From the NCBI RefSeq assembly GCF_000341185.1, contig NZ_ANBH01000130.1:1156-65155 (forward strand): a DNA stretch of 64,000 nucleotides. Reading direction: 5' to 3'. A model generated the notes under the pieces. The model did no database searches. It saw only the letters and a program-made list of their open reading frames with translations, and had not been told where the DNA came from. This document shows, in pieces, positions 38,952 to 63,605 of the stretch. Made by a program: the position numbers and the translations under genes. Each line of letters starts with the position of its first letter. Position 1 is the stretch's first letter. The stretch is from Nocardiopsis chromatogenes YIM 90109. Its GTDB lineage: Bacteria > Actinomycetota > Actinomycetes > Streptosporangiales > Streptosporangiaceae.

Positions 38952-39359
38952 GGTCGCGGTGAACTCCTTGTCCTCATGCCCGGCGGCCACCGCTGCGGCC
39001 CACGGTGGAACGCCGCCCGCCTGAGGGAGAGAGGCGGGCACGCCGACCCTACAGAGGCGTGCGGGGCGACCGGGCCGTAACGCGAGTATCGGCGGCCGGT
39101 GACCGGATCCGGTCGCCCCGCGGCGGCACCCCGACGTTTGCCGCAAGGAACTTCGCTCCTCTTTCACCACTCAGCGAACGCGCGTCCTCCTCTGAAGCAG
39201 GGTGCGCAGCCGCCACCCGAGAAAACAGTGAAGCACGCGATTACAGGAATGCGCACATTTCTCACGGCATTCCTTATCCGGCCATGGCGGACTGTTGACG
39301 GTGTGTTCCTCCCGGGGTGTTCTAGTAGGAACGGAGAAATCCCTCCCCTCGGAGATGCG
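38952..39359. other. Divergent promoter region, helicase-nuclease versus type ISP gene
   Basis: About 400 bases. The half next to the methylase gene (from about 39180) is clearly less GC-rich and contains an 8+8 inverted repeat and a TTGACG hexamer at 39295-39300, a possible -35. No protein-like ORF. Confidence 0.5.
39245..39274. promoter_or_regulatory. Inverted repeat before the type ISP restriction-modification gene
   Basis: AGGAATGC, 14 bases, GCATTCCT: a perfect 8-base inverted repeat 86 bases before the ATG and just upstream of a possible -35 hexamer. Candidate operator or short hairpin. Confidence 0.45.
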
Positions 39360-44609: not shown

Positions 44610-44652
44610 ATTCTCGATATTCGAGCTGTCAAGCAGATTCTCGATATTCGAG
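44610..44652. promoter_or_regulatory. Twin operator: two copies of ATTCTCGATATTCGAG
   Basis: Exact 16-base copies at 44610-44625 and 44637-44652, 27 bases apart. Each contains the palindrome CTCGA-TAT-TCGAG. Between them, TTGACA on the minus strand (44632-44627) is a possible -35 for the HATPase gene. They lie 24 bases before the HTH gene ATG. Probable binding sites for that regulator. Confidence 0.75.
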
Positions 44653-44675
44653 TTCGGATGGCATAGGCTTCTCCC

Positions 44676-45533
44676 ATGCACCGCCCCTTCAGCCCCACCG
44701 TCCGACGGCGCCGCCTGGCCCGTGAGCTGCGACGCCTGCGCGAGGCCAGCGGCCTCAAGCTCTCCACGGCCGCCAAGGACGCCGACGTGCCGCAGTCCAC
44801 CCTGAGCAACATCGAGAGCGCCGATGCCCGGCGGATCAAGGCTCGCGACATCGACGCCCTGGCTGACCTCTACGGCGCCTCGCAAGAGGTTCGTGTCGCC
44901 TTGCACGAGCTGTCACGCGAGTCCAAGGAGCAAGGCTGGTGGTCAAAGTACCGCGACGTCTTCGGCGGCAACGCGCTGCCCGACTTCGAGGCCGAAGCCT
45001 CCATGATCCGCACCTACCAGTGCCAAGTGATCCCGGGACTCCTCCAAACGCCTGCATACGTTGAAGCCGTCTTCCGGGGCGGTGGAGCCTACGCGGACGA
45101 CAAGGTCACCAGGCACGTGGACGCCCGCCTGCGCCGGCAGCAGATCCTGACCAGGAACCGACCGCCTCACCTGTGGGCCGTGGTCGACGAGGCGGCTCTA
45201 CGGCGTCGTCTCGAAGATCCGGCGATCATGCGGGAGCAGCTTCAGCACCTCGTCGATCTCGCGACGCACCACAACATCGACATCCAGGTCCTGCCGTTCA
45301 CGGCCGGAATGCACGCGGGCCTGTCGGGCTCCTTCTACCTGCTGGATTTCCCCCATGATGCCGACCCCAGCATCGTATACACCGAGACCGCCACGGATAG
45401 CCTCTTCGTCCAGGACCCTGATTCAGTGCAGCGCTATGTCACGATCTTCGCCCACCTGAATGCCGCCGCACTCCGCACTTCAGAGACCATCACGTTCGTC
45501 AGACGGATCATCGAGGACGAAGGGCCAGCATGA
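44676..45533 (+). CDS. WhiJ-like HTH regulator with DUF5753 domain
   Basis: A 285-residue XRE-type regulator. The HTH spans about 15-70 (LARELRRLREASGLKLSTAA, ADVPQSTLSNIESADARRIK). The DUF5753 domain (Scr1-type) spans about 95-280, with WWSKYRDVFGGNALPDFEAE, YQCQVIPGLLQTPAYVEAVF and IDIQVLPFTAGMHAGLSGSF. In Streptomyces such genes, with a DUF397 partner and a HATPase, modulate development and antibiotic production and behave like antitoxin-toxin pairs (family knowledge). ATG at 44676; the stop overlaps the DUF397 gene. Likely binds the twin sites upstream. Confidence 0.93.
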   Translation: MHRPFSPTVRRRRLARELRRLREASGLKLSTAAKDADVPQSTLSNIESADARRIKARDIDALADLYGASQEVRVALHELSRESKEQGWWSKYRDVFGGNALPDFEAEASMIRTYQCQVIPGLLQTPAYVEAVFRGGGAYADDKVTRHVDARLRRQQILTRNRPPHLWAVVDEAALRRRLEDPAIMREQLQHLVDLATHHNIDIQVLPFTAGMHAGLSGSFYLLDFPHDADPSIVYTETATDSLFVQDPDSVQRYVTIFAHLNAAALRTSETITFVRRIIEDEGPA

Positions 45534-45724
45534 GAATCACCGGTGAGCCGGTCTTCTTCAAGTCGAGCTACAGCAGCGACCGTGTGGAATGCGTCGAGGT
45601 CGCTCCCCTCCCCGTCGGAGCCGCCCTACGCGACTCCAAGCACCCCGACCGGGCCGTGCTGGGGTTCCCCTCCTCCGAGTGGCACGCCTTCCTCTCGACG
45701 CTGGGCGACGACGCGACCTCCTGA
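45530..45724 (+). CDS. DUF397 protein
   Basis: A 64-residue DUF397 domain in full: FFKSSYSSDRVECVEVAPLP, ALRDSKHPDRAVLGFPSSEW and HAFLSTLGD. It is the usual small partner of DUF5753 regulators (the Scr2/Scr1 arrangement). ATG at 45530 overlaps the regulator's TGA (ATGA). A hairpin follows. Confidence 0.94.
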   Translation: MRITGEPVFFKSSYSSDRVECVEVAPLPVGAALRDSKHPDRAVLGFPSSEWHAFLSTLGDDATS

Positions 45725-45773: not shown

Positions 45774-45950
45774 CCACTCCCGCCCCGACGATTCGGACCA
45801 CGCCGGCCTTCCTGAATGGATCCGCAGGAGAGACACACCGGCCGGATCACCTCTCCCTCGGCGGTCACGGCGTCCCTTCCGCGACGCACCGCCCCACTCG
45901 GGACTTTCGTCCCTTCTCTTTTCCGGGCGCCCCGCTTCACCGTTCTTTGG

Positions 45951-45979
45951 TTGTGAACACAGTTCACACTCGCTACTGT
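45951..45979 (+). promoter_or_regulatory. DISARM promoter with overlapping operator
   Basis: TTGTGA (45951-45956), 17 bases, TACTGT (45974-45979) makes a reasonable sigma-70-type promoter. A perfect inverted repeat TGTGAAC-ACA-GTTCACA (45952-45968) covers the -35 hexamer and most of the spacer, so a bound dimer would block RNA polymerase. It lies 122 bases before the drmD ATG. Confidence 0.6.
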
Positions 45980-46100: not shown

Positions 46101-49100
46101 ATGCCCAGCACAACCGAAGAGCGCCCCGCCCCGGGATCGCTCGTCGCCGTCCGCGGACAGAAGTGGGTCGTCAGCGATGTCGACCACGCCGACGGCGGCA
46201 CCCTGGTGACCCTGCAGAACACCGACAGCGGCCGCTACGGCGAGACCCTGAGCGTCCTGTGGGAGATCGAGCCCGGACGGCGGGTCCTCCCCCGCGGCTC
46301 CCTCCCCCCGGTCTCCCCCGACCGCTTCGACCCGCCCGAGCGCCTGGCCGCCTTCCTCGACGCGGTGCGCTGGTCAGCGGTCACCTCGGCCGACACCCGC
46401 ACCCTCCAGGCCCCCTTCCGCTCCGGCGTGGCCATCGAGGACTACCAGCTCGAACCGGTCACCCGCGCGGTCGGCGCCCCGCGCGTGAACCAGCTCCTCG
46501 CCGACGACGTCGGCCTCGGCAAGACGGTCGAGGCCGGGCTGGTCGCCCAAGAGCTGCTGCTGCGCCACCGGGCCCAGCGCATCATGGTCGTCTGCCCCGC
46601 CGGGCTGACGGTCAAGTGGAAGGACGAGATGGCCGAGAAGTTCGGCCTGGACTTCACCGTCATCGACTCCGACCGCTGCGCCCAGGTCCGCCGGGACTAC
46701 GGCAGCGCGGCCAACCCGTTCAAGGTCTACCCGCTCACCATCGTCAGCCTGTCCTGGCTGCGGGGCCCCAAGGCCCAGCGCCTCCTCGACGAGGTCCTGC
46801 CCGCCGGCGGCGCCATGGGCCCCGAGGACCGCGTGTTCGACCTGCTCATCCTGGACGAGGCCCACCACGTGGCTCCGGCCGCCCCCAAGCAGGTCTACGC
46901 CGTGGACTCCCAGCAGACCAAGCTCATCCGCCGCCTGGCCCCGCACTTCACGCACCGGCTGTTCCTGTCGGCCACCCCGCACAACGGCTACCAGGCCTCG
47001 TTCACCGCCCTGCTGGAGATCCTGGACGACCAGCGCTTCGCGCGCGGGGTCGAGCCCGACCCGGCCGCCGTCAAGGACACGGTGGTGCGCCGCCTCAAGC
47101 GCGACATCACCGACGCCGACGGCAACCCCCGTTTTGTCGAGCGGGACGCCCGCTCCCTGCCGGTCGACTACCCCGACAGCGAACGGAAGATCCACGGCCT
47201 GCTCACCCGCTTCGCCGAGCTTCGCCGCAGGAAGCTCACCACCCGCCGCGGCCGTAAGGCCACCGACCTGGTCACCCTCCTGCTGAAGAAGCGCCTGTTC
47301 TCCAGCCCCGCCGCCTTCGCGCACACGGTGGAGGTCTACCTGGAGACGCTGCGCGCCAAGGGGCGCCCGCTCGACCCGTTCGCCGACGGGGACGGCGAGG
47401 ACGAGGTCCCCGAGTGGATGGAGGACTTCTACGACGAAGCCGCGGCCTACAACGACGAGGAGCTCGCCGAGGCCGAGGACGACGCCCTCGACCGCACGCG
47501 CCCGATGCAGCCCGACCCGGACGACGACGAGACCGCGCTGCTGGAGCGCATGCTCGAATGGGCCCGGGACCACGAGGCGCTGCCCGACGCCAAGGCGTCC
47601 AAGCTCATCGAGTACCTGACGGCGGTCTGCAAGCCCGGCGGGCACTGGACCAACGAGCGCGTCGTCGTGTTCACCGAGTACCGCGACACCCTCGACTGGC
47701 TCCGCGAACTCCTCCGCCAGCAGGGCCTGGGCGGCGACCGGGTGGCCGAGCTCCACGGCGGCCTGGGCACCGACGAGCGGGAGCGGCTGCGGGTCGCCTT
47801 CCAGAAGGAGCCGTCCGAGCACCCGGTGCGCATCCTGCTGGCCACCGACGCCGCCAGCGAGGGCATCGACCTCCAGCGCCACTGCCACCGCCTGGTCAAC
47901 TACGACATCCCGTTCAACCCGAACAAGCTGGAGCAGCGGATCGGCCGCATCGACCGATACGGCCAGACCCGCACGCCGGAGATCCGCCACTTCGTGGGCA
48001 CCGGATGGGACACGGCCGTCGACTCCTATGAGGCCGACCTGGAGTTCCTGTCCCGTGTGGCCACCAAGGTCGCCCGCATGGAGGAGGACCTGGGGTCGGT
48101 CAACGCGGTGCTCTCGGACGCCGTGCAGCGCCGGATGCTCGGCCAGGGCGCACCGGTGGACGTGGACGCGGCCGGCGCCAAGGGCGACCGAGTGCCGTCC
48201 GAGGCCAACGTCCGCGAGCAGGTGCGCCGGGTCCGGACCGAGCTGGAGCGGACCGTCGAGGAGCTGGGCATCACCCCCGTGCGGGTCAAGCGGGTCGTGG
48301 ACACGGCGCTGGGCCTGGCCCGCCAGCAGTCCCTCCGCCCGCACGTGGACGAGAGGCACTTCGCCGAAGGCATGTTCGAGGTCCCGCCGCTGACCGGTTC
48401 GTGGGTGCGGGCCACCGAGGGACTGACCGAGAAGCCCGCAGCGGGCGCCGCGGACGGCGGCAAGAGGCACGGCGGCAAGCGCGACGAGCCGCTGCGCCAG
48501 CTCCCCGTCACCTTCGACCCGGAAGTGGCCAAGGGCCGCGACGACGTGGTGCTGGCCCACCTCAACCACCCCTTGGTGGCGATGTCCACGCGGCTGCTCC
48601 AGACGGCGGTCTCCAACGACCAGGTGGGCCTGGACCGCGTCACCGCGGTCGTCAGCGACGATCCGGAGCTGGAGGACGTGCTGGTCGGCGCCTTCTCCCG
48701 GTTCGTGCTGGTGGGGGCCGACGGTATGCGCCTGCACGAGGAGGTGCTGCACGCGGGCGGCTGGCTGCCCGAGGGCGGGCGCTTCCGCCGCCTGGAGAAC
48801 CTGGGCGCGCTGCGCGGGATGCTCGACCGGGGACTGACCGACGGCACGCCGCTGGCGGGCCCGGTCTGGCACCGGATCCACCAGCGGTGGACCGACCGCG
48901 CCTCGGACGGCCTGATGAAGGCGATCGAGTGGCGCAAGGAGACCCGGCTGGAGTCGCTGCGCCGCAGGCTGGAGCAGCGCGAGGCCGAGGAGCGCGAGCG
49001 CGCGACCGAGGTCATCGACCGGTTCAGCGCCACCCTGCGGGCGGCGCTGGCCGAGGACGACGCGGACGCCGAGAACGCGCTGTTCAGCACGGCGGAGATC

Positions 49101-49292
49101 ACCCGCACCAGCAAGGAAGAGCGCGAGCAGTACCGGAAGGACCGGATGAACTGGGAGAAACGGTTGGACGAGCTGGCCGCCGAGCGCGACCGCGAGCTGA
49201 AGGCGATCGCGGCCCGCTACAGCCGCCAGGAGCCGCACTCCTTCCCCGTCGCCGTCGTCTTCGTCGTTCCGAAGCGGGAGGCCGTCCGATGA
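46101..49292 (+). CDS. drmD: DISARM SNF2-like helicase DrmD
   Basis: A 1,063-residue SNF2-family ATPase, the first gene of class 1 DISARM, an anti-phage system that restricts DNA lacking the host methyl mark. N-terminal SH3-like strand region (LVAVRGQKWVVSDVDHA), ATPase core with LADDVGLGKTVEAG (Walker A, near 135), LLILDEAHHV (near 252), LFLSATPHNGYQ, and C-terminal half with VVFTEYRDTLDWL, LLATDAASEGIDLQ and KLEQRIGRIDRYGQ. The C-terminal 350 residues are a long accessory region rich in Arg/Glu coiled coil. ATG at 46101 follows AGGAAG. Its stop overlaps drmMI (ATGA). Confidence 0.92.
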   Translation: MPSTTEERPAPGSLVAVRGQKWVVSDVDHADGGTLVTLQNTDSGRYGETLSVLWEIEPGRRVLPRGSLPPVSPDRFDPPERLAAFLDAVRWSAVTSADTRTLQAPFRSGVAIEDYQLEPVTRAVGAPRVNQLLADDVGLGKTVEAGLVAQELLLRHRAQRIMVVCPAGLTVKWKDEMAEKFGLDFTVIDSDRCAQVRRDYGSAANPFKVYPLTIVSLSWLRGPKAQRLLDEVLPAGGAMGPEDRVFDLLILDEAHHVAPAAPKQVYAVDSQQTKLIRRLAPHFTHRLFLSATPHNGYQASFTALLEILDDQRFARGVEPDPAAVKDTVVRRLKRDITDADGNPRFVERDARSLPVDYPDSERKIHGLLTRFAELRRRKLTTRRGRKATDLVTLLLKKRLFSSPAAFAHTVEVYLETLRAKGRPLDPFADGDGEDEVPEWMEDFYDEAAAYNDEELAEAEDDALDRTRPMQPDPDDDETALLERMLEWARDHEALPDAKASKLIEYLTAVCKPGGHWTNERVVVFTEYRDTLDWLRELLRQQGLGGDRVAELHGGLGTDERERLRVAFQKEPSEHPVRILLATDAASEGIDLQRHCHRLVNYDIPFNPNKLEQRIGRIDRYGQTRTPEIRHFVGTGWDTAVDSYEADLEFLSRVATKVARMEEDLGSVNAVLSDAVQRRMLGQGAPVDVDAAGAKGDRVPSEANVREQVRRVRTELERTVEELGITPVRVKRVVDTALGLARQQSLRPHVDERHFAEGMFEVPPLTGSWVRATEGLTEKPAAGAADGGKRHGGKRDEPLRQLPVTFDPEVAKGRDDVVLAHLNHPLVAMSTRLLQTAVSNDQVGLDRVTAVVSDDPELEDVLVGAFSRFVLVGADGMRLHEEVLHAGGWLPEGGRFRRLENLGALRGMLDRGLTDGTPLAGPVWHRIHQRWTDRASDGLMKAIEWRKETRLESLRRRLEQREAEERERATEVIDRFSATLRAALAEDDADAENALFSTAEITRTSKEEREQYRKDRMNWEKRLDELAAERDRELKAIAARYSRQEPHSFPVAVVFVVPKREAVR

Positions 49293-52200
49293 GCGCACCC
49301 ACCACCGCCGCACGCCGGCGCCGCACCACCGGCGAGGACAGCGCCGAGCAGCACCGCAACTGGCTGAGCCTGATCGAGGTCGACGGGCCGTTCCTGACGC
49401 TGCCGGTGCTGCGCGCCACCTGGCCCGCGCGGCTCGAACCGCTCGACAAGGAGGAGCGCGCCCGGATGCGCCGCGAGCACGCGCGCTGGCAGGCCGCCTC
49501 GGCCACGACGGCCGGGCAGCAGGCGTGGATCCGCTACCTGCTCGCGGACATGCTGGCGTGGGGCGATGACCTGCACCTGGCGGCCCGGGGCCCGGAGGAG
49601 GGTGCCGAGGGGAACGGTGCGGAGCGCGCCGGGGCGGCGTCCGCGAGCGACGGCGCCACGGGCGAGGACGGGGGCGGGGACACGGACGCCGCCGCGCTCG
49701 ACGCCCTGGCGCTGGAGGTCCCCGAGCACGAGACCCGCGTCGTCCCGTCGTTCGTGCTGACCGCGCCGGGTGAGGCCGTCAAGCCGGACACCGTGCGGGT
49801 GCTGGGGCTGGTGTGCCCGCCCGGCCAGCAGCCCACCGCCCGGATCAAGGGCGAGGCGTGGGCCGCCAGCCCGGCGGACCGGCTGGCGCAGCTCTGCCGC
49901 CACCACGGGGTGGAACTGGGGCTGGCCACGGACGGCCGATGGTGGGCGCTGGTGTGGGCGCCGCGCGGAGGCGTGACGACCACCGCCGTCTTCGACACGG
50001 CGGTGTGGAACGAGCGCGCCGAGCGGGACGTGGTGGAGGCGTTCCACTCCCTGCTGTGCCGGCGCCGGTTCTTCGGCGTGCCGGACGAGGAGACGCTGGT
50101 CCGGCTGCTGGCCAAGAGCCAGGACGGGCAGGAGGAGATCACCGAGGCCCTGGGCGTGCAGGTGCGCCAGGCGGTGGAGCTGCTGGTCGCGGCGTTCGGC
50201 CGGGCCGACACCAAGCTGCGCGAGCGCGGCGAGCCCGACCTGTCCGAGGTCGACGCGCACGAGGTCTACCGGGGCGCGGTCTCGGTGATGATGCGCGTCG
50301 TCTTCCTGCTCTTCGCTGAGGAGCGCGGGCTGCTGCCCTCGGACAACGACCTCTACCTGAAGTCGTACTCGGCGGGTCGGCTGTGCGCGGAGCTGGAACA
50401 GCGCGCGCTGGAGGGCAGCGAGGACGAGCTGGAGGAGACCTACACGGCCTGGCACCGGCTGCTGGCCCTGTTCGAGGCGGTGTACCAGGGCGTGGACCAC
50501 CCGCGCCTGCGCATGCACCCGCACGACGGGTCGCTGTTCAACCCGGCCGAGTTCCCCTGGATGCCGCTGCTCATCGACGACCGCACGGTGCTGCACATGC
50601 TGCGGTCGGTGCAGTACGTGGTGGTCGGCAAGGGCAAGAGCAAGGAGCGGCGGGCGCTGTCGTTCCGGTCGCTGGACGTCGAGCAGATCGGGTACGTGTA
50701 CGAGGGCCTGCTCTCCTTCGACGGGTACCGGGCCGAGAGCGAGACGGTCGGACTGACCGGCAAGGTCGGGGCCGAGGAAGAGGTAGAGCTGCGGCGGCTG
50801 GAGGAGATGGCCGCACAGTGCGCCGACGTTCCCGCGCTGGCGGCCAAGCTGGCGGCGGAGTTCAAGGACTCGGGGATCGGGTCGGCCCGCGCGCTGGAGA
50901 AGAAGCTCGCGCCGCTGTCCGGGGTGGAGAAGGAAGAGGCCCGGAAGAAGGTTCAGGCGGCGGTCGGCAACGACCAGGCGCTGGTGGAACGGCTGATGCC
51001 GTTCTACGGGGTGCTGCGGGAGGACCTGCGGGGCCTGCCGTTCGTAGTGCTGCCGGGTGAGCTGTACGTGACGGAGTCGTCGCTGCGGAAGAACACGGGG
51101 ACGCACTACACGCCGAGGTTCCTGGCGGAAGAGGTCGTTGAGGGGGCCTTGGAACCGCTGGTGTACGAGCCGGGGCCGCTCCAGACCGCGAACAAGGACG
51201 AGTGGAAGCTCAAGTCCAGCCGGGAGATTCTGGACCTGAAGGTCGCCGACATCGCGATGGGGTCGGCCGCCTTTTTGGTGGCGGCGGCGCGCTACCTGGG
51301 CGACAAGCTTCTGGAGGCGTGGACGAACGAGGGCGACGAGCGGGTCCGCGACTACACGCCGGGGAGCGACGGCGCGAGCGCGGATGAGGACCCGGTGGTG
51401 ATCGAGGCACGGCGCCAGATCATCGAGCACTGCCTGTACGGGGTGGACATCAACCCGATGGCGGTGGAGATGGCGAAGCTGTCGCTGTGGCTGGTGTCGA
51501 TGGACCCGGAGCGGCCGTTCACGTTCTTGGACGACCGGCTGGCGGCCGGGGATTCGCTGTTGGGGATCACGTCTTTGGAGCAGCTTGAATACATGCACAT
51601 GGACCCGAAGAAGGGGAGGGAGATCCATTCCGAGGGGGCGTTGATCGACTTCACGTCGGGTGTGCGTGAGCTAGTGGAGCGAGTTGCGGAACGGCGTCGC
51701 GAGGTCACTGAAATCGACGGCGCCACCTTGGAAGGCCTCGTTCGCAAGCGCGAGCATCTGAAGGAGGCCGAACTTGATTTGGAGCAGGCGCGCCTCTTGG
51801 CAGATCTCACCGTGGGGGCCGCTTTGGCATACGCCACCCAGGGAGAACGTGAGCAACAGAGCGGCGCACTCACCTCTGCTGACCTAGCACGAAGGATTGA
51901 GGCTGCTAATGCAGAGGCAAGAGTTCAGGCCCAGGAGTGGCTAGACACAGGGCGCCCTTCTGAGTCCTTCACCCGAACCCCCATCCACTGGCCCCTCACC
52001 TTCCCGGAAGTGTTCGCCAAAGAAGGCTTCGACGCAATTATCGGAAACCCACCTTTCCTTGGAGGCAAGAAAATAAGCGGCTCCACAGGGGGCGCATACA
52101 GGGAATACCTCGTAAAGAATATCGCAACCAACAAAAAGGGAAATGCAGACCTTGTTGCATACTTCACTCTTCAAGGTCACGCAATCACTAACAAGAATGG

Positions 52201-53479
52201 CCAGCTCGGGATTATAGCCACTAACTCCCTAGCTCAGGGAGATACCCGCGAAGTCTCGCTCGACCAATTGCCCAAGCGGGGAGTCACTCTGCGGCGCGGG
52301 ATAAGTAGCACCCCTTGGCCTTCCAGGAGTGCAGCCCTTGAATTCTGCGCCATCTGGACAAGCAAATATGAACCAAAAAAAGAATCGTCAACCATCTTGG
52401 ATGGCACTATCGTCCCCGGGATAACCCCAAGCCTCACACCGAGAAGTAGAATCTCTACGCCCCCTAAGCGCCTTGCGGCAAATCGAGGCCTTTCCCACAT
52501 TGGAGTTCTGGTCAACGGAACTGGGTTCACACTCGACGAGAGGCGCGCCTCGGAGTTCATCTTAGACGACGCCAAGAACTCCAGAGTCCTCCACCCATAC
52601 CTCAATGGCCAGGACCTAAACACAGACCCAACCTGCTCAGCTTCACGATGGATTGTCGACTTCAACGACCTCCCAATCGACGAAGCAAGCAACTACAAGC
52701 TACCATTTAAATGGGTCACAGAAAGAGTAAAACCGGAACGCGAACAGAATAAGCGCAGATCGTACCGCGAACGCTGGTGGCAGTATGCAGAGAACCAAAA
52801 CTCGATGCGATCCGCCATCGCCAACCTGCAACGCATTATCGCTATCACCTCCGTCAGCAAGAGTGCAATACCGGCAGCACTTCCCACTGGGCAGATCTTT
52901 TCCCATATGCTAGCCGTTTTCGCAACCGAAGACATGGCTATGCTATCCCTACTCACAAGTTCCCCACATTATTGGTGGGCAAAATCCCGCGGTTCATCCA
53001 TGAAGGCTGACCTTCGCTACACCCCCTCCGACGTCTTCGAGACCTTCCCTCTCCCCGAGCTCACCCAGGAGATGCGTGACCTCGGCGAGCACCTCGACAC
53101 CTACCGCCGGGACGTCATGCTCTCCCGGGACTCTGGCCTGACCAAGACCTACAACCTCGTCTTCGACCCCGACTGCAACGACGAGGACATCGTCGAACTC
53201 CGCCGCATCCACCGCGAGATCGACGAGGCCACCATCCGCGCCTACGGCTGGGAGGACCGCATCGAAGCCGTCGGCGGGCTCGACCACGGCTTCCACAAGG
53301 TCGGCGGGCGCGAGACCCGCTACACCATCGGCCCGGCCGCCCAGCGCGAAGTTCTCGACAGCCTCCTCGAACTCAACCACGAGCGCTACGCCGAAGAGGT
53401 CGCCCAGGGCCTCCACGACAAGAAGAAGTCCGGCAAGTCCAAGAAGAAGGCCGCCGACGACGAAGGGACGCTGTTCTGA
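49289..53479 (+). CDS. drmMI: DISARM adenine methyltransferase DrmMI
   Basis: A 1,396-residue Eco57I-type N6-adenine methylase that marks host DNA in class 1 DISARM. Motif I is DIAMGSAAFLVAAARYLGDK (near 655), preceded by GTHYTPRFLAEEVVE; the linker has YGVDINPMAVEMAKLSLWLV, and motif IV is IIGNPPFLGGKK (near 920). The specificity part runs from there to about 1250, and the tail has DCNDEDIVELRRIHREIDEA. From about 51640 to 53030 the DNA is much lower in GC than the rest of the gene, with rarer codons, as if this target-recognition part came from another source. ATG at 49289 overlaps drmD. Confidence 0.92.
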   Translation: MSAPTTAARRRRTTGEDSAEQHRNWLSLIEVDGPFLTLPVLRATWPARLEPLDKEERARMRREHARWQAASATTAGQQAWIRYLLADMLAWGDDLHLAARGPEEGAEGNGAERAGAASASDGATGEDGGGDTDAAALDALALEVPEHETRVVPSFVLTAPGEAVKPDTVRVLGLVCPPGQQPTARIKGEAWAASPADRLAQLCRHHGVELGLATDGRWWALVWAPRGGVTTTAVFDTAVWNERAERDVVEAFHSLLCRRRFFGVPDEETLVRLLAKSQDGQEEITEALGVQVRQAVELLVAAFGRADTKLRERGEPDLSEVDAHEVYRGAVSVMMRVVFLLFAEERGLLPSDNDLYLKSYSAGRLCAELEQRALEGSEDELEETYTAWHRLLALFEAVYQGVDHPRLRMHPHDGSLFNPAEFPWMPLLIDDRTVLHMLRSVQYVVVGKGKSKERRALSFRSLDVEQIGYVYEGLLSFDGYRAESETVGLTGKVGAEEEVELRRLEEMAAQCADVPALAAKLAAEFKDSGIGSARALEKKLAPLSGVEKEEARKKVQAAVGNDQALVERLMPFYGVLREDLRGLPFVVLPGELYVTESSLRKNTGTHYTPRFLAEEVVEGALEPLVYEPGPLQTANKDEWKLKSSREILDLKVADIAMGSAAFLVAAARYLGDKLLEAWTNEGDERVRDYTPGSDGASADEDPVVIEARRQIIEHCLYGVDINPMAVEMAKLSLWLVSMDPERPFTFLDDRLAAGDSLLGITSLEQLEYMHMDPKKGREIHSEGALIDFTSGVRELVERVAERRREVTEIDGATLEGLVRKREHLKEAELDLEQARLLADLTVGAALAYATQGEREQQSGALTSADLARRIEAANAEARVQAQEWLDTGRPSESFTRTPIHWPLTFPEVFAKEGFDAIIGNPPFLGGKKISGSTGGAYREYLVKNIATNKKGNADLVAYFTLQGHAITNKNGQLGIIATNSLAQGDTREVSLDQLPKRGVTLRRGISSTPWPSRSAALEFCAIWTSKYEPKKESSTILDGTIVPGITPSLTPRSRISTPPKRLAANRGLSHIGVLVNGTGFTLDERRASEFILDDAKNSRVLHPYLNGQDLNTDPTCSASRWIVDFNDLPIDEASNYKLPFKWVTERVKPEREQNKRRSYRERWWQYAENQNSMRSAIANLQRIIAITSVSKSAIPAALPTGQIFSHMLAVFATEDMAMLSLLTSSPHYWWAKSRGSSMKADLRYTPSDVFETFPLPELTQEMRDLGEHLDTYRRDVMLSRDSGLTKTYNLVFDPDCNDEDIVELRRIHREIDEATIRAYGWEDRIEAVGGLDHGFHKVGGRETRYTIGPAAQREVLDSLLELNHERYAEEVAQGLHDKKKSGKSKKKAADDEGTLF

Positions 53480-56400
53480 TGTCCTCCGACGGGCTCTTCC
53501 CCAACCCCAACGGGGAGCAGACCTCCCTCGACGCGACCGGCGCTGCCCCTCCCCCGCCCTCCGCGCAGGACGCGCAGGGCAAGGACGACACGACCGACCA
53601 GCCCAAGCCCCGCACCGGCCCCGCCCTCACCGACCCCCAGGAGCTCATCGACCGCCTCGACACCCCCCAAACCTTCAGCGGCGCCTCCTCCTACCAGGTC
53701 CGCGACGAGTTCCAAGAGCTCGTCGCCCGCGACCTCCTCGGCCCCTGGGGCGGCGACTACGAGGAGTTCGCCCCGCGCGCCCGCGGCCCCCGGGAGCGCT
53801 ATCTCGTCGGCATGCTCGGTCCCCGCGACAAGCCCGCCGCCTCGCACACCGCCGACGCCGGGGACCTCGCCGACACCGAGGCCGGCGTCGGCGGCAGCGC
53901 CAAGGGCGAGGAGGGCGGCGAACTCCCCGACGTCGTCACCACCCAGAACCTCGGGCACATCTGGGCCTCCTCCATGGGCCTGGCGTTCACCGTCGCCGAC
54001 GAGACCGACGCCCTGTCCGTCACCGCCTCCTGGGGCGAGTACTCCCGCCGCACCATCACCGACGACGACGGCAAGTCCCGCACCACCTGGGCCCGGGATC
54101 CGCGCACCTACATGCGCGAGGTCCGCCTGGACGGCGACCGGAACCAGCGCATCGGCCTCACCGCCGCCGACACCGACACCCCCGGCGTCTACCTCGACGT
54201 CGCCGTGCGCCCCCGCGACGGCCGCCGCACCGTCGAGCTGACCCTCATCAACGGCCAGCAGCAGCCCTCCACCACCCCCGACACGGCCTGGCTGTTCCAG
54301 ACCCGCCTGGCCGTCACCGCCCGCGACGGCGGCTCCCCCGTCTTCCTCCCGATCGACGACCCGCTGGACCCGGCCCAGCCCGCCCCTCCGCAGGCCGACA
54401 CCGAGGACCTTCGCCTCCGTCTGCTCTACCGCAACCAGCTCTCCTACGCCCGGGGCCGCAACGTCGCCGTCCAGGAGGACGCTGACCCCGAGCTGCGCCG
54501 GGCGCGCAGGCTGGAGACCACCTGGCTGCCCACCTACGACGTCCCGCCGACCAGCGCCCCCTCCGGACCGGGCACGCCGCTCGAAGGCACCGAGCTGTCC
54601 ATGGACGCCTTGGCCGCGGCCTCCCCCGAGGAGCTGGCCTCCGGCCTGGCGCCGCTCGCCGACGGCTACTCCGCCTGGCTGGACGAGCGCGAGGCCGAGA
54701 TCGGCGGCCTGCCCGAATCCCTGCGCGGCACCGCCGAGGCCGCCGTCTTCCAGGCCCGCAGCGCCGCCGAGCGCATCCGCGCCGGGATCGACCTGCTCTC
54801 CGACCCGTCGGCGCCCGGCCACGACGACGCCCTGCGCGCCTTCCGCTTCGCCAACCGGGTGATGGCCGACCAGCGCCGCCACACCGAGATCGGGCGGCTC
54901 CGCGAGGACCGCGACCGCTCCTACGCCGACGCCGAGCGCGCCGTGCGCGAGCGCGGCCCCTCCGCCGCCTCCTGGCGCCCCTTCCAGCTCGCCTTCGTGC
55001 TGCTGAACCTGCCCTCCCTGGCCTCCCCCTCGCACCCCGAGCGGGCCGCCTCCCCGCGCGCGCTCGTGGACCTGCTGTTCTTCCCCACCGGCGGCGGCAA
55101 GACCGAGGCCTACCTGGGGCTCACCGCGTTCACCTTCGCCATCCGCCGCCTCCAGGGCATTGTCGGTTCCGGCGAGGACGCCCGGTCCGGGATGGCCGGG
55201 GTCGCCGTGCTCATGCGCTACACGCTGCGCCTGCTCACCGCTCAGCAGTTCCAGCGCGCCGCCTCGCTGGTGTGCGCCGCCGAGGTGGAGCGCCGCGCCG
55301 ATCCCGACACATGGGGCGAGGAGCCCTTCCGCATCGGCCTGTGGGTCGGCGGCGGGGTCTCGCCCAACTGGTACAAGGAGGCCGAGGACCAGATCCGGGA
55401 CGCCCGCGAGGCCGGCCACGGCGAGCGCACCAACGTCCTGCAGACGCTCGCCTGCCCGTGGTGCGGGGAGGAGCTGACCGCCCAGCGCGACCTGGAGCCC
55501 GACCCGGTCGCCCGGCGCGTGCGCCTGTTCTGCCCCAACGGCGAGGGGACCGACGCCTGCCCCTTCTCCAAGCGCTCCTCCGCCGACGGCCTTCCCATCC
55601 TCACCGTCGACGAGGAGATCTACCGGTACACCCCCAGCCTGGTCATCGCGACCGTGGACAAGCTGGCGCGGCTCCCCTGGAGCGGGTACGCGGGCATGCT
55701 CTTCGGCCGGGTCCGGGAGCAGTGCCCCCGGCACGGGTTCCGCCACGACGACCTGGACCGCAAGACCGACTGCCGGAGCAGGCACACCGCGAAGGCGGGC
55801 TACCCCGCGGCCACCAGCCGCCCCGTCCCCCGGCTGCGTCCGCCGGACCTGATCATCCAGGACGAGCTGCACCTGATCTCCGGGGCGCTGGGCACCACGG
55901 TCGGGCTGTTCGAGTCCGCCGTGGACCGGCTGTGCACCTGGACCGCCCCCGACGGCTCGCGCACCGCGCCCAAGATCGTGGCCTCCACCGCCACCACCAA
56001 GCGCGCGGAAGCCCAGGTGCGCGGGGTGTTCGCCCGCGACCTGCGGATCTTTCCCCCGCAGGTCACCGACGTGGCCGACACCTTCTTCTCCCAGCAGGTG
56101 CCGATCTCGGAGAGCTCGCCGGGCCGCCGGTACATGGGGGTGTGCGCACACGGGGTGCGGCTGAAGTCGGCCGAGATCCGGCTGGCGGAGATCCTGCTCA
56201 TCGCCGGGCAGACCATGTTCGACGCGCACGGCGAGGCGGCCGACCCGTACATGACGACGGTCGGCTACTTCAACGCCACCCGGGAGCTGGCGGGCATGCG
56301 GCGCTACGTGGACGACGACGTGGTCACCCGGGTGCGCCGCAACGGCCGCGCGAAGGGGCTGTCCAACCGGCTGCAGGGCACCACCCAGCTCCTGGAGGTC

Positions 56401-57435
56401 CAGGAGCTCACCTCGCGCGTGTCCTCGGGCGACATCAGCCGGGTCCTCAAGGGGCTGGAGGTGCCGTTCGACCCCGAGCTGGACACCTCCGACCGCAAGC
56501 GGACCATCATCCAGCACGGGGCGGCGATCATGCGCGGCCGCGGCGGCGGCTCGCGGCCCAAGCAGCCCGAATACCACCCGCTGGCGGACCAGCGCATGCT
56601 GCGCGCCCGGGAGGGCCGGGTCCCGGTGGACATGGTGCTGGCCACGTCCATGCTCCAGGTGGGCGTGGACGTGTCCCGGTTCGGGCTGATGATGGTGACC
56701 GGGCAGCCCAAGAACACGGCCGAGTACATCCAGGCCTCCTCCCGCGTGGGCCGTGACGCCCGTCGGCCGGGCCTGGTGGTGACGCTGTACAACTGGACCC
56801 GACCGCGCGATCTGGCGCACTTCGAGGACTTCCGGAACTACCACGCCTCCTTCTACCGCGAGGTTGAGGCGCTGTCGGTCACCCCGTTCACCCGCCGCTC
56901 GCTGGACCGGGGCACCGCGGCGGCGTTCGTGGCGGCCGTGCGCAACCTGGCCGAGGAGTACTCGCACAACGCCGACGCCCAGGACGTGGACTTCAACGGC
57001 GATGTCGTGGAGGACGTGGTGCAGCACCTGTTGGAGCGCGCCGAACAGGTGGGGGGCGAGCGCGGGCGCGCCTATCTCGCTGAGCGCATCAACGTCCTGA
57101 AGGACGTGTGGAACACCAAGCGCTCCGGGGAGACGCGGCTGGGATACGACCGCGAGTCCTCCGGCCCCACCCGGTTGGTGGAACTGCTCAACCGTCCCGG
57201 CGAGGGCCCCTGGATGGCGACCACCGTCGGCATGTCCATGCGCGAGACCGAGAACGAGGTCAACCTCCTCCTGCCCAGGGACGGACGCTTCTTGAACCCG
57301 CCGGTCGGTGCTCCTGAGTGGTCCTTCGCGCCGGGCGGTGCGGACGGCGCCGGTGCCGCGGGCACCGAGGACGACACCGACGAGCTCGGCCAGTCCGCCT
57401 TCGACACCAAGCAGGCCCGGGAGGGGAACCGATGA
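53479..57435 (+). CDS. drmA: DISARM SF2 helicase DrmA
   Basis: A 1,318-residue helicase, one of the three core DISARM proteins. After a disordered Pro/Gly N-terminus and a beta-rich region (about 60-330), the helicase carries FFPTGGGKTEAYLGLTAFTF (Walker A, near 536), a zinc-like Cys cluster (CPWCGEEL, CPNGEGTDACPF), IIQDELHLISGALGTT (motif II written DELH, near 795), VASTATTKRA, TSMLQVGVDVSRFGLMM and QASSRVGRDARRPG (motifs V and VI). These are DrmA hallmarks. ATG at 53479 shares one base with the drmMI stop (TGATG). Its stop overlaps drmB. Confidence 0.94.
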   Translation: MSSDGLFPNPNGEQTSLDATGAAPPPPSAQDAQGKDDTTDQPKPRTGPALTDPQELIDRLDTPQTFSGASSYQVRDEFQELVARDLLGPWGGDYEEFAPRARGPRERYLVGMLGPRDKPAASHTADAGDLADTEAGVGGSAKGEEGGELPDVVTTQNLGHIWASSMGLAFTVADETDALSVTASWGEYSRRTITDDDGKSRTTWARDPRTYMREVRLDGDRNQRIGLTAADTDTPGVYLDVAVRPRDGRRTVELTLINGQQQPSTTPDTAWLFQTRLAVTARDGGSPVFLPIDDPLDPAQPAPPQADTEDLRLRLLYRNQLSYARGRNVAVQEDADPELRRARRLETTWLPTYDVPPTSAPSGPGTPLEGTELSMDALAAASPEELASGLAPLADGYSAWLDEREAEIGGLPESLRGTAEAAVFQARSAAERIRAGIDLLSDPSAPGHDDALRAFRFANRVMADQRRHTEIGRLREDRDRSYADAERAVRERGPSAASWRPFQLAFVLLNLPSLASPSHPERAASPRALVDLLFFPTGGGKTEAYLGLTAFTFAIRRLQGIVGSGEDARSGMAGVAVLMRYTLRLLTAQQFQRAASLVCAAEVERRADPDTWGEEPFRIGLWVGGGVSPNWYKEAEDQIRDAREAGHGERTNVLQTLACPWCGEELTAQRDLEPDPVARRVRLFCPNGEGTDACPFSKRSSADGLPILTVDEEIYRYTPSLVIATVDKLARLPWSGYAGMLFGRVREQCPRHGFRHDDLDRKTDCRSRHTAKAGYPAATSRPVPRLRPPDLIIQDELHLISGALGTTVGLFESAVDRLCTWTAPDGSRTAPKIVASTATTKRAEAQVRGVFARDLRIFPPQVTDVADTFFSQQVPISESSPGRRYMGVCAHGVRLKSAEIRLAEILLIAGQTMFDAHGEAADPYMTTVGYFNATRELAGMRRYVDDDVVTRVRRNGRAKGLSNRLQGTTQLLEVQELTSRVSSGDISRVLKGLEVPFDPELDTSDRKRTIIQHGAAIMRGRGGGSRPKQPEYHPLADQRMLRAREGRVPVDMVLATSMLQVGVDVSRFGLMMVTGQPKNTAEYIQASSRVGRDARRPGLVVTLYNWTRPRDLAHFEDFRNYHASFYREVEALSVTPFTRRSLDRGTAAAFVAAVRNLAEEYSHNADAQDVDFNGDVVEDVVQHLLERAEQVGGERGRAYLAERINVLKDVWNTKRSGETRLGYDRESSGPTRLVELLNRPGEGPWMATTVGMSMRETENEVNLLLPRDGRFLNPPVGAPEWSFAPGGADGAGAAGTEDDTDELGQSAFDTKQAREGNR

Positions 57436-59357
57436 GCGCCCAGAGCGGCAAGTACCGGCGCCGGGTCGGCGCCGTCCGTCCCAGCCACCTCATGTTCACC
57501 ACCGGGGTGGGCGCGCTGGTGGACCTGCCCAACATCGCGGTGCTGGTGCGCGGCGTGGACGACTGGAACTACGACGACGTCCCGGACTGGGAGCCGATCA
57601 CCGAGCCCCGGCTGCTGCGCGAACTCAACAGGTTCCACGACGGCCGCCACGTCAAGCAGCTCCGCCCGGCTCCGTGGCTCGACGGCTTGGACGCCGACCC
57701 GAACGGCCCGGCGGCGCGCGTCGGCGTCCCGGTCATGCCGTTCCCGACGTGGCTGCGGTGCACGGCCTGCAACGAGCTCGCGAGTCTGGACTCCAAGGCC
57801 TTCGACTTCGAGAACGACAAGCCCCGTCGGCCCCAGGACGCGCGCTTCTTCCACCGGGGCTGCCCGAAGAAGCGGAAGGGGAAGCCGCCGCTGGCGGTCG
57901 CCGCCCGCTTCGTCCTGGCCTGTTCGCAGGGGCACCTCGACGACTTCCCCTACGCCCACTTCGTGCACGAGGGGGCGGACTGCCCCAAGGCGCCGCAGCC
58001 CAAGCTCCAGATGGACGACCGCGGCGGCAACATCGGCGCCAACGTCTCGATCCGCTGCATGGCGTGCCAGCAGCACCGCAACATCCGCGACGCCCTGGGC
58101 GAGCGCGGCCGGGACGAGCTGCCCGCCTGCCGGGGGCGCCACCCCCACCTGAGCGTGTTCGAGCAGTCGGGCTGCAAGCAGCGGCCGGTCGTGCTGGTGG
58201 TGGGCGCCTCCAACCAGTGGTTCGCCCAGACCCTGTCGGTGCTGTCGGTCCCCGAGGGCGGGGCGAGCGACCTTCAGATGAAGGTGGTGGAGCACTGGGA
58301 GCTGTTGAGCAAGCTCGGCGACCCGAAGATGATCGTTCTCGCGCGGGAGCACATCCCGGAGTTCAAGCAGTTCGCAAAGTGGTCGGACGATGAGATCGTC
58401 GCTGCGATCGAGAAGGTCGGCGCCGCCAAGGAAGCCGAAGCCTCCGGTGATTCCGGCGCCGATCAGGAGCAGGGTCAGCCGGACCTGCTCACCCCTGAAT
58501 GGGAGGTCTTCTCCGCCCCCGAGGCGCCGGAGCCCACGGACGACTTCGCCCTCTACCGCGCCCCCGAGGGCGTCCCCGAATCGCTGGCGCCCTACTTCTC
58601 CGACGTGGTGCAGGCCGAGCGCCTGCGCGAGGTCCGCGCGCTGCGTGCGTTCACCCGCCTGGACGCCCCCGACCCCGAGGACCCGGACCTGGTGTCTCGG
58701 GCGCCCCTCAGCCGCGGCGAACTGACCTGGGTCCCGGCCAGCGAGGTGCGGGGCGAAGGGATCTTCCTCCGCGTCCCCGAGGAGGTGCTGAGCGGCTGGG
58801 AGGAGCGCATCGCCGGCAGCGATGCCCTGCGCCTGCACCAGGAGGCCTACAAGCAGTTCCGCATCAACCGCTACTCGGGGCGCATCCCCGGCGGCTTCGA
58901 CCCGATGCGGCTGTGGCCGGGTGCGCGCTACATCGCCCTGCACACCCTCTCCCACCTGATGATCCGCGCGATCGCCCTGGAGTGCGGCTACAACGCGGCC
59001 AGCCTTTCCGAGCGCATCTACGCCGGGGACGAGGAGGACCCGCGCGGCGGCATCCTCGTCTACACCGCCGTGCCCGACGCCGAGGGCACCCTGGGCGGCC
59101 TGGTCTCCCAGGCCGCGCCCGAGCGACTCGTCCCGCTGGTGGACAAGGCGCTCAAGGGCGCGATGCGCTGCTCCTCGGACCCCTTGTGCCGTGAGCGCCT
59201 GCCCCAGCCCCACGCCGACTTCCTGCACGGCGCCGCGTGCCACGTGTGCCTGTTCGTCTCGGAGACCACCTGTGAGAAGGGCAACCGCTTCCTGGACCGC
59301 CGCTTCGTCGTCCCGGTGGACGACCCGAAGCTGGCGCTGTATCCGGAGCTGCCGTAG
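57432..59357 (+). CDS. drmB: DISARM protein DrmB (DUF1998)
   Basis: A 641-residue core DISARM protein with DUF1998. It starts MSAQSGKYRRRVGAVRPSHL and shows Cys-rich zinc sites: LRCTACNELAS (near 108), CSQGHLDDFPYAHFVH, IRCMACQQHRNI (near 209) and the C-terminal DUF1998 site HGAACHVCLFVSETTCEKGN. HTLSHLMIRAIALECGYNAA is the conserved DUF1998 helix. In DISARM it works with DrmA as a DNA-binding complex (literature knowledge). An acidic linker lies at about 335-360. ATG at 57432 overlaps the drmA stop (ATGA). Confidence 0.94.
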   Translation: MSAQSGKYRRRVGAVRPSHLMFTTGVGALVDLPNIAVLVRGVDDWNYDDVPDWEPITEPRLLRELNRFHDGRHVKQLRPAPWLDGLDADPNGPAARVGVPVMPFPTWLRCTACNELASLDSKAFDFENDKPRRPQDARFFHRGCPKKRKGKPPLAVAARFVLACSQGHLDDFPYAHFVHEGADCPKAPQPKLQMDDRGGNIGANVSIRCMACQQHRNIRDALGERGRDELPACRGRHPHLSVFEQSGCKQRPVVLVVGASNQWFAQTLSVLSVPEGGASDLQMKVVEHWELLSKLGDPKMIVLAREHIPEFKQFAKWSDDEIVAAIEKVGAAKEAEASGDSGADQEQGQPDLLTPEWEVFSAPEAPEPTDDFALYRAPEGVPESLAPYFSDVVQAERLREVRALRAFTRLDAPDPEDPDLVSRAPLSRGELTWVPASEVRGEGIFLRVPEEVLSGWEERIAGSDALRLHQEAYKQFRINRYSGRIPGGFDPMRLWPGARYIALHTLSHLMIRAIALECGYNAASLSERIYAGDEEDPRGGILVYTAVPDAEGTLGGLVSQAAPERLVPLVDKALKGAMRCSSDPLCRERLPQPHADFLHGAACHVCLFVSETTCEKGNRFLDRRFVVPVDDPKLALYPELP

Positions 59358-59370: not shown

Positions 59371-60159
59371 ATGAACGCGACGGTGGACAGCCCCGGCCCC
59401 TCCGCCTTCGAGGCGGCGGCGGAGGAGGCGGCCTCCCGCCTGGGCGGCGCGCTCCTTCGGGAGGTCGCGGGGCGGATCGGCCAGGGGTGGCCCGACCAGG
59501 CGATCCTGGGCTCCTCCCGGGACTCGGGCGGGGTGGCGCCGCTGTTGGAGGCCCGCAGGTCCGCCAGTGTGCCGCGTGCGGAGGCCGCGGCCTTCCTGCG
59601 CGGCCTGGCGGCCGGGTACGCCCGGGGCAGCGGCGCGGTGTCGGTGGAGACCGTGTGGAGCGGCCCGGCCAGCCACGCCGTCCCGACCCGGGCGACCGCG
59701 CAGGCCCTTCTGGAGGTCATCGAGGAGGCGCGCTCCGAGCTGGTGCTGATGACCTACTCGGCCCGCCGCAACGACGCCATCCGGCAGGCCCTCGCGGCGG
59801 CCGCCGAGCGGGGCGTGCGCATCGACGTGGTCGTGGAGACGCTCGAAGGGGCGGGCAGCGCCCTGGGCGGTGACCAGCCCGGGGCGGCCTTCGCCGGGCT
59901 GGACGGGGTCGGCCTGTGGCACTGGCCGCTCGCCCGGCGCACGGAGAAGGGGGCCAAGTCGCACGCGAAGCTGGCGGTCGCCGACCGGCGGGTGCTGCTG
60001 GTCTCCAGCGCCAACCTGACCCAGTCCGGGGTGGCCCGCAACATCGAGGCGGGCCTGCTGGTGCGCGGAGGCGAGACTCCCCGGCGGGTGGCCGAGCACA
60101 TCGCCGAGCTGCGGGCGCGCAAGGTGCTCGCCCCCCTGGCGGCGGGGGGCGCGGCGTGA
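59371..60159 (+). CDS. drmC: DISARM phospholipase-D-fold nuclease DrmC
   Basis: A 262-residue protein with a single clear PLD half-site, SHAKLAVADRRVLLVSSANL (His198, Lys200), preceded by ELVLMTYSARRNDAIRQALA and GVRIDVVVETLEG. This is the layout of DrmC, the third core DISARM component; the nuclease is dispensable in some tested systems (family knowledge). The N-terminal 110 residues are helical. ATG at 59371, 13 bases after the drmB stop, with a GGAGGGCAGGG ribosome site. Its stop overlaps the next gene (GTGA). Confidence 0.92.
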   Translation: MNATVDSPGPSAFEAAAEEAASRLGGALLREVAGRIGQGWPDQAILGSSRDSGGVAPLLEARRSASVPRAEAAAFLRGLAAGYARGSGAVSVETVWSGPASHAVPTRATAQALLEVIEEARSELVLMTYSARRNDAIRQALAAAAERGVRIDVVVETLEGAGSALGGDQPGAAFAGLDGVGLWHWPLARRTEKGAKSHAKLAVADRRVLLVSSANLTQSGVARNIEAGLLVRGGETPRRVAEHIAELRARKVLAPLAAGGAA

Positions 60160-61976: not shown

Positions 61977-63605
61977 GCGGCGCCGCCCCCGCCCCCCCGG
62001 CCCCTGCTCGCCGAGCGCTACGAGCTCAAGCCGACCCCGATGGCGCGCGGCGGTATGGGCGAGGTCTGGGAAGGGCACGACACCCGGCTGGACCGCGAGG
62101 TCGCCGTCAAGTTCCTGCGCTTCCCCGACGGCGAGCACGACCCGGACCTGGTGCGCCGGTTCGTCCGCGAGTCGCGCATCACGGCCCGCCTGTGCCACCC
62201 CGGCGTCCCCGGCGTCTACGACGCGGGCACCGAGAACGGGCGCCCCTACCTGGTGATGCAGCGCATCCACGGGATCAGCGTGGCCGACCTGGTGGCCGAG
62301 GAGGAGCGGCTGCCGGTCGGCTGGGCGGCGGCGATCGCCGCCCAGGTGTGCGCGGTGCTCACCGCCGCGCACCGCCGGTCGCTGGTGCACCGCGACCTCA
62401 AGCCCACCAACCTGATGCTGGAGCCGGACGGCACGGTCAAGGTGCTGGACTTCGGGCTGGCGGTCGCGCTGGACCGCTCCGACGGCTCGCGGATCACCCG
62501 GACGGGCGAGTCGCCCGGCACCCCCGCCTACATGGCCCCCGAGCAGGTCATGAGCGGCATGAGCACGCCCCAGACCGACCTGTACTCGCTCGGCTGCACG
62601 CTGCACGAGATGCTGACCGGACGCCGCGTGTTCACCGGATCCACTCCGTTCGCGGTCATGCACGGGCAGGTCCACCAGGCCCCGCGCCCGGTGCGGGAGC
62701 TGCGCCCGGACGTGCCCGCCGACCTGGACGCGGTGATCGATCGGATGCTCAGGAAGCGGCCGGAGGACCGGCCCGGCGGGGCCGAGGAGGTCTACCGCGC
62801 ACTGCTGCCCTTCGCGGCCGCGCTGGGGCCGCTGCCGGGGGTCCTCGACCCGCCGTCGGTGCCCAGTCCGACCCGGATGCAGGCCTCGGTCCTTGAGCGG
62901 GTCTTCGCCGAGGCGGCCGGTGTCGGCGGGCCGTCCGGGCAGGGAGGGGCCGGGCACGGGGTGGCCGACCGCAGGGCCGGCCCGGTCGAGACCGCCGCCG
63001 GGGAGGGCGGCGACGGCGGCACCTCGTCCATGACGCGGCTGGACATCGCCCATGCCCGTTCGGAGGCCGCCGCCCTGTCCGGCTCCTCGCGCTACCGGCA
63101 GGCCGCCGACGTGCTGCAGGCCGCCGTGGCAGCGGCACGGGGCGTCTTCGGACCGAACGACGGCGACGTGGTCGAACTGCGCATGGACCTGGCCAACATC
63201 CTGTTCGAGGGCGGCGACTTCCGCGCGGCCGAGCCGGAGTTCTCCGCCCTCGCCGCCGACTTGGCCGAGGCCGGGGCCCCGTCCGACGGGTCCCTGGTGT
63301 TCCGCTGCCGCTTCCAGGCCGCCACCTGCCGCGCCCTCGCCGGGGAGACGGCGAGCGCCCTGGAGGAGCTGCAGGCGCTGCGGGCGGACGAGGAGCGCGC
63401 CTACGGGGCCGATGACGCCCGCCCCCTGGAGCTGCGGCGCCAGATCGGGCTCCTCCAGCGGGGCGCGGGCCAGCACGCCGAAGCCCACGCGACCCTCACC
63501 GCCCTGGCCGAGGACCTGTTGCGCATCCACGGGCCCGGCCATCCGACCCTCGAACAGGTCACCGACCTGCTCGACCCCCCGCACGGCGGGCAGGCCGGCG
63601 TCTAG
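61973..63605 (+). CDS. Ser/Thr protein kinase at the end of the DISARM operon, apparent frameshift at a C7 run
   Basis: A Hanks-type kinase of about 540 residues. Motifs: RGGMGEVWEGHD (Gly loop), REVAVKFL (ATP Lys), LVHRDLKPTNLML (catalytic loop), VLDFGLAVAL (DFG), GTPAYMAPEQV (APE) and DLYSLGCTLHEM. The C-terminal 200 residues are TPR-like helices. No transmembrane helix is seen. The ATG at 61973 overlaps the methylase stop (ATGA) but opens the wrong frame. The expected kinase N-terminus, PLLAERYELKPTPMARGG, lies in the next frame. Dropping one C from the seven at about 61997-62003 joins them. An internal start at 62040 would lose the first kinase strand. Confidence 0.82.

What the first reader, a model, noticed from the sequence alone, without database searches (positions are those of the whole stretch)
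45951..45979. Perfect operator overlapping the DISARM promoter
TGTGAAC-ACA-GTTCACA covers the -35 and spacer of TTGTGA-N17-TACTGT. Defence operons are often silenced by dedicated repressors. No repressor gene is in the operon, so an outside factor must recognise this site.
Basis: partly seen in the sequence, partly recalled or inferred. Interest (0 to 1): 0.6.

Follow-up and report, generated by a model that had tools for sequence, protein, structure and literature searches.

The report
Conserved dedicated switch for DISARM defence
A short mirror-image DNA sequence sits on the start signal of a bacterial anti-phage defence operon and recurs at the same place in dozens of related operons from three actinobacterial families, so it is very probably a binding site for an unidentified protein that switches this defence on and off.

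Summary
The palindrome is real: TGTGAAC-ACA-GTTCACA at 45952-45968, overlapping TTGTGA-N17-TACTGT, 132 bp before drmD (46101) of a class 1 DISARM operon. A perfect 7-3-7 palindrome alone is not rare (18 in the window). Conservation makes the case. A 17-bp element, TGTKAA-N5-TTMACA with at most 2 mismatches, lies upstream of drmD in 43 of 61 loci compared, always with five central bases. It is absent from the diverged drmD loci checked. A blind scan for the motif hit a Streptomyces sparsogenes DISARM. Where an insert separates drmA from drmD, drmA carries its own copy in 8 of 14 such loci, against 0 of 16 uninterrupted ones. The element accompanies a Ser/Thr kinase gene: 41 loci have both, 8 neither, 3 kinase only, none element only, 9 undeterminable. 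Best reading: a dedicated operator for a dimeric repressor acting on each transcription unit of kinase-bearing class 1 DISARM. Rex, the neighbouring XRE-DUF397 pair and the operon's HTH-methyltransferase fit poorly. The bound protein is unidentified; repression and promoter activity are inferred, not shown.

The parts
45952..45968 (.). Operator: perfect 7-3-7 inverted repeat TGTGAAC-ACA-GTTCACA (half-sites TGTGAA / TTCACA, N5)
   Evidence: conserved upstream of drmD in 43 of 61 loci
45951..45979 (+). Candidate drmD promoter: -35 TTGTGA, 17-nt spacer, -10 TACTGT (TANNNT)
   Evidence: TANNNT at 5 nt after the operator in 9 of 43 loci and at 15 nt in 12 of 43; not called by the strict scan
45900..45923 (+). 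Terminator-like hairpin GGGACTTTCGTCCC plus T-rich tail between the upstream regulator pair and the DISARM promoter
   Evidence: hairpin kept with one change in the sister locus G143
46101..49292 (+). drmD (SNF2-like helicase), first gene of the operon
   Evidence: Pfam, PADLOC DrmD
49289..53479 (+). drmMI (adenine methylase, MmeI-like TRD); start inferred
   Evidence: the match begins at residue 313 of the longer ORF 48401-53479
53479..57435 (+). drmA (helicase)
57432..59357 (+). drmB (MZB domain)
59371..60159 (+). drmC (PLD-like)
60156..61976 (+). Accessory N6-methyltransferase with HTH-like N-terminus (HTH read by eye; Pfam reports no HTH)
61973..63605 (+). Ser/Thr kinase with C-terminal TPR-like helices; the gene that tracks the operator. 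Reading frame changes near its 5' end, so the open ORF is 62040-63605
44676..45533 (+). XRE / DUF5753 regulator (WhiJ/Scr1-like), upstream neighbour; not favoured as the binder
45530..45724 (+). DUF397 protein (BldB/Scr2-like), partner of the XRE gene
44616..44655 (.). Stretch with two copies of CTCGATATTCGAG upstream of the XRE gene, probably the XRE protein's own sites and unlike the DISARM operator
   Evidence: function inferred

Best explanation
The palindrome is a dedicated operator of a kinase-bearing subtype of class 1 DISARM. A dimeric helix-turn-helix protein, most likely a repressor, binds two TGTGAA half-sites (centres 11 bp apart) lying in the -35/-10 region of the drmD promoter and keeps the operon low. 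When inserts split the operon, drmA gets its own copy, so the same protein keeps the separated units in step. Relief of binding, perhaps through the operon's Ser/Thr kinase, would turn the defence on. Shown here by sequence: site, conservation, fixed spacing, recurrence at drmA, co-occurrence with the kinase. Inferred: protein binding, dimer, repression, promoter activity, induction, kinase link.
For: Conserved N5 element upstream of drmD in 43 of 61 loci. Spacing specificity: 20 of 23 for N5 against 0-2 of 23 for any other spacing. Unique in genomes: TGTGAAYNNNRTTCACA once each in G000 and G143, both at DISARM, 0 in 20 other DISARM genomes. Blind scan of genome-contig hit a Streptomyces sparsogenes drmD promoter; of the other stored hits I looked at nine only. 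drmA copies in 8 of 14 split operons against 0 of 16 unsplit. TANNNT at 5 nt (9 loci) or 15 nt (12 loci) after the operator, a 10-bp shift that keeps the helical face. Terminator-like hairpin isolates the promoter from the upstream genes. Kinase co-occurrence: 41 both, 3 kinase only, 8 neither, 0 operator only.
Against: No binding protein identified; no expression or binding data. Strict promoter scan negative. Ten of 43 loci show no TANNNT within 25 nt, so the geometry is unproved there. Exchanging right halves among the 38 distinct sites does not reduce dyad matches significantly (543 of 2000 shuffles reach the observed value): the arms are conserved, not shown to compensate. G937 has a kinase but no operator; G040 and G886 have only 3-mismatch versions. 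Between the window and its nearest relative G143 (86% mean column identity over 266 columns) flanking promoter DNA is conserved as well, so that pair alone does not single out the operator. 6 of 14 split operons show no drmA copy above score 15 in the searched stretch.
Confidence: 0.62

Rival explanations
1. The site is an activator site: a dimeric activator binds over or near -35 and recruits RNA polymerase, perhaps after phosphorylation by the operon's kinase.
For: In family f3 the site centre lies about 24 bp before the predicted -10, where class II activators can bind; the association with a kinase fits an activated factor; in ten loci no overlapping promoter is evident.
Against: In the window and eight other loci the site fills the -35/-10 spacer (TANNNT 5 nt after it), and in G132, G753 and G818 it is 1 nt from TANNNT; activators seldom tolerate such shifts (general knowledge).
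Confidence: 0.2
2. It is a Rex (redox-sensing repressor) site, tying DISARM to the NADH/NAD+ ratio.
For: Half-site TGTGAA equals the Rex half-site; the S. coelicolor Rex consensus is TGTGAACNNNTTCACA (PMC5355995, passages); Rex is present in all 10 genomes searched; Rex sites may cover -35.
Against: All counted operators have N5 while Rex sites have N4; the same 10 genomes each carry TTGTGAA-N4-TTCACA sites; in G072, G056, G030 and G107 those Rex-type sites have G at position 4 whereas the DISARM operator has T in one or both arms; the own genome has one N5 site, the DISARM one.
Confidence: 0.05
3. The XRE(DUF5753)-DUF397 pair encoded just upstream (44676-45724) is the regulator.
For: It is the nearest regulator; members of this family regulate neighbours (PMC10294661, passages); genes clustering with this XRE gene lie in 15 of 37 DISARM neighbourhoods.
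Against: The XRE gene near drmD in sister locus G143 is a different family member (not among pairs above 42% identity) while the operator arms are identical; the window's XRE is closest to one in G076, a locus without the operator; WhiJ9 binds direct repeats CGNNCTCAAC; the window's XRE has its own, different repeat; most operator loci lack such a gene nearby.
Confidence: 0.08
4. The HTH-bearing N6-methyltransferase in the operon (60156-61976) autoregulates through this site.
For: It has an HTH-like N-terminus (read by eye) and lies in most operator loci; in family f3 degenerate sites (CATTGACTNTGTTCACA) lie between it and the divergent kinase gene.
Against: Not found in the searched neighbourhood of operator loci G111, G081, G140, G015, G1105, G992 and G879, though the flanks of G879 are short. 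Pfam reports no HTH.
Confidence: 0.08

Closest known systems
BrxR (WYL) control of BREX defence islands, R-BOX1/R-BOX2 (PMC9122601, passages read)
   Same: Inverted repeats with a 5-bp spacer near the promoter; a second copy before a later transcription unit of the same island; repression keeps defence low.
   Different: BrxR arms are 10-11 bp, here 6-7; brxR is encoded in the island; a regular-expression search for WYL-type proteins in the DISARM neighbourhoods found none.
RptR control of a Type I R-M island (PMC12255303, passages read)
   Same: Small dedicated repressor with sites over the core promoter of a defence island.
   Different: RptR is the first gene of the island and binds several TAGCTA 6-bp palindromes; here the first gene is drmD and the site is a single 17-bp palindrome.
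Rex operator of streptomycetes (PMC5355995, passages read)
   Same: Same half-site letters (TGTGAA); sites may overlap -35.
   Different: Rex spacing N4, here N5 in every counted locus.
WhiJ/BldB-type XRE-DUF397 pairs (PMC10294661, passages read)
   Same: Such a pair lies next to this promoter.
   Different: WhiJ9 binds direct repeats; the pair is not conserved with the operator.

Membership tests
Class 1 DISARM operon (the regulated genes) | drmD, drmMI, drmA, drmB, drmC | tested here: met
Rex operator | TTGTGAA-N4-TTCACAA | tested here: not met
   N5 here and in all counted loci
LexA / SOS box of actinobacteria | GAAC-N4-GTTC (recalled) | tested here: not met
   GAAC-N3-GTTC in the window, and GAAC/GTTC not kept in relatives
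CRP-type site | TGTGA-N6-TCACA (recalled) | tested here: not met
   TGTGA-N7-TCACA
BrxR R-BOX | 10-11 bp arms, 5-bp spacer | tested here: not met
   spacer of 5 met, arm length not met
BrxR R-BOX | WYL regulator gene in the island | tested here: inconclusive
   regular-expression search only; no WYL-type protein among the called genes of the neighbourhoods
Operator in the wide sense | bound by a regulator that changes transcription | not testable with these tools
   needs binding and expression data

The most novel reading that the evidence does not exclude
Kinase-bearing class 1 DISARM is run as a small dedicated regulon: one trans-acting dimeric factor, not encoded beside the system in a conserved place, reads a 17-bp N5 operator at each DISARM transcription unit, and the operon's own TPR-bearing Ser/Thr kinase, the only gene found to track the operator, controls that factor by phosphorylation so that infection switches the defence on.
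Probability: 0.25. Interest if true: 0.78.

Novelty: new variant of a known kind. Interest (0 to 1): 0.6.

Why it matters
How DISARM is switched on is not described in the papers found here (open-licence library only, listings). A conserved operator gives a concrete handle: a bait to fish out the regulator, a simple test of induction, and a sequence signature that marks a kinase-bearing DISARM subtype and its accessory genes. It also suggests that inserts between drmMI and drmA are tolerated because drmA brings its own operator.

Tried and rejected
Rejected: Rex (spacing, base 4); CRP and LexA (spacing); local XRE-DUF397 pair (not conserved with the site); HTH-methyltransferase (not found near several operator loci); a DNA-binding domain in the kinase (Pfam: kinase plus TPR; a low-depth AlphaFold model shows only helices after the kinase domain, mean pLDDT 71, three sequences; Foldseek's 50 rows are kinases); a WYL regulator in the neighbourhoods (regular expression only).

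Led nowhere: one search examined eleven loci: L146, nine other hits of the blind scan and one; five of the nine lie inside a called gene and none shows a shared regulator. The search of 394 family-f3 genomes for TGTGAACTNNGTTCACA with up to 1 mismatch (34 genomes hit) gave DISARM-locus sites in G992, G1049, G1105, G1190 and, judging by neighbours homologous to G747 insert genes, G1116; among the 30 loci fetched the other sites show no common regulator. The three 2-mismatch sites of the own genome lie at unrelated genes. ACACAG, which I recall (from no call) as a class 1 DISARM methylation motif, lies in the palindrome but not in G143's, and is not enriched in the window (9, expected 16); the paper search listed one paper, which I did not read. 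Dyad covariation test not significant.

Dropped before counts: drmD places never fetched (G114, G043, G121, G027); G053 and G094 looked at only; seven diverged phylum loci looked at only, no site. Sspa was found by the motif itself, so the count without it is 42 of 60. In the kinase table a weak 92-bit hit in G037 was counted as no kinase. Early read minus-strand loci in the wrong orientation; corrected.

Full report
OBSERVATION. The sequence at 45951-45979 is as described. TGTGAACACAGTTCACA is unique in its genome at 0-1 mismatches. Perfect 7-3-7 palindromes are common in this GC-rich window, 18 in all, but this is the only one with AT-rich arms. The strict sigma-70 scan does not call the promoter. 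The gene 132 bp downstream of the palindrome is drmD, first of drmD-drmMI-drmA-drmB-drmC, followed by an N6-methyltransferase and a Ser/Thr kinase. A terminator-like hairpin at 45900-45923 separates the promoter from the upstream XRE-DUF397 pair.

CONSERVATION. I searched 150 genomes of the same family for DrmD (37 with a match at E<=1e-100), 396 of the phylum (8, E<=1e-200), 394 of the class (16, E<=1e-250) and 394 of family f3 (21, E<=1e-260); the sets overlap. The Streptomyces sparsogenes locus falls inside the f3 rows of the DrmD tree, so f3 is presumably Streptomycetaceae (inference). Of 23 close drmD loci in the first set, 20 carry TGTKAA-N5-TTMACA with at most 2 mismatches within 300 bp; other spacings give 0-2 of 23, a Markov null mean 0.16 and maximum 2, and 5 diverged loci give 0. 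Over 61 loci 43 carry it, 13 without mismatch, 13 with one, 17 with two. They come from three families: f1 (the window's), f90 and f3. Seven further diverged loci of the phylum search have none. Position counts over the 43 sites are: positions 2-3 and 15-16 (GT...AC) never vary.

INDEPENDENT RECOVERY. Of nine other hits of that scan that I examined, five were inside called genes; the rest of the list was not examined.

A SMALL REGULON. Scanning 1.84 Mb of DISARM neighbourhoods for at most one mismatch gave many N5 sites, nearly all at drmD, but only two N4 and no N6 sites. Extra N5 sites lie before drmA when the operon is split. Of the 42 loci where drmA was found, drmA lies more than 10 kb from drmD in 14 loci of the operator or kinase type: 8 of them score above 15 with a matrix built from the drmD sites only (random 440-bp windows: 95th percentile 5.5, 99th 19.5, true sites not removed; 0.1 to 1.5 percent of those windows score as high as these eight); 0 of 16 unsplit operator loci and 0 of 5 split loci without operator do so. 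Weaker copies at drmA in G747, G992 and G1105 lie outside the stretch searched there. Further sites lie between divergent kinase and nuclease-like genes (G1049; 'nuclease-like' read by eye), at insert genes of G747, and in degenerate form between methyltransferase and kinase genes of f3.

GEOMETRY. After the operator a TANNNT hexamer follows at 5 nt in 9 loci (the window included) and at 15 nt in 12 loci of f3; in all 33 of 43 have one within 25 nt and ten have none. The shift of 10 bp keeps the helical face. In the window the site fills the -35/-10 spacer, which suits a repressor (inference).

WHO BINDS? Rex: present once over the cut-off in 10 of 10 genomes, with N4 sites in 10 of 10, but the DISARM site is N5, and in four of these genomes it has T at position 4 of at least one arm where the Rex-type sites have G. 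XRE-DUF397: the XRE gene near G143's drmD is a different paralogue although the operator arms are the same. HTH-methyltransferase: not found near several operator loci. DrmD to DrmC: present in G1189, G1132 and G792, which lack the operator. The kinase is the only gene found to track the site: 41 loci with both, 3 with kinase only (G040 and G886 with 3-mismatch sites, G937 without), 8 with neither, none with operator only, 9 undeterminable because a contig or fetched flank ended (Fisher P=2e-7, which ignores relatedness; within the close clade 41/3/3/0, P=0.001). On the DrmD tree G1189 and G1132 join the f3 operator loci with support 90 (not starred), so joint loss is possible but not certain. 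The kinase shows no DNA-binding domain. Hence an unidentified factor encoded elsewhere, or a variable local one, is the best guess.

COMPARISON. BrxR (5-bp spacer, two R-boxes in one island) and RptR are the closest known ways of control; neither fits what is encoded here. I found no description of a DISARM operator in the open-licence library (listings only apart from the passages named).

VERDICT. The site is a conserved dedicated control element of kinase-bearing class 1 DISARM; the regulator and the sign of regulation remain open.

Noticed in passing
window 61973-62060: The kinase gene changes reading frame near its 5' end in a C-rich run, while the sister genome G143 has one open frame; sequencing error or true frameshift.
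   Followed up: no
between drmMI and drmA in related loci (e.g. G132, G613, G747): A hot spot of gene insertion: drmA lies from about 7 kb to 55 kb after the drmD start.
   Followed up: partly
window 44616-44655: Two copies of CTCGATATTCGAG upstream of the XRE(DUF5753) gene, likely that regulator's own sites.
   Followed up: partly
window 60156-63605 and L153:10827-15278: A recurring accessory module after drmC: N6-methyltransferase, Ser/Thr kinase (PD-T4-6/mad6-like), UvrD-like helicase, GmrSD-N protein.
   Followed up: partly
window 39099-42728: A Type IIG restriction enzyme-methyltransferase upstream, i.e. a defence island.
   Followed up: no
L170 (own genome C66:1229-1244): A Rex-type TTGTGAA-N4-TTCACAA site between a methyltransferase-like and a reductase-like gene (read by eye); sites of this kind occur in all 10 genomes searched.
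   Followed up: no
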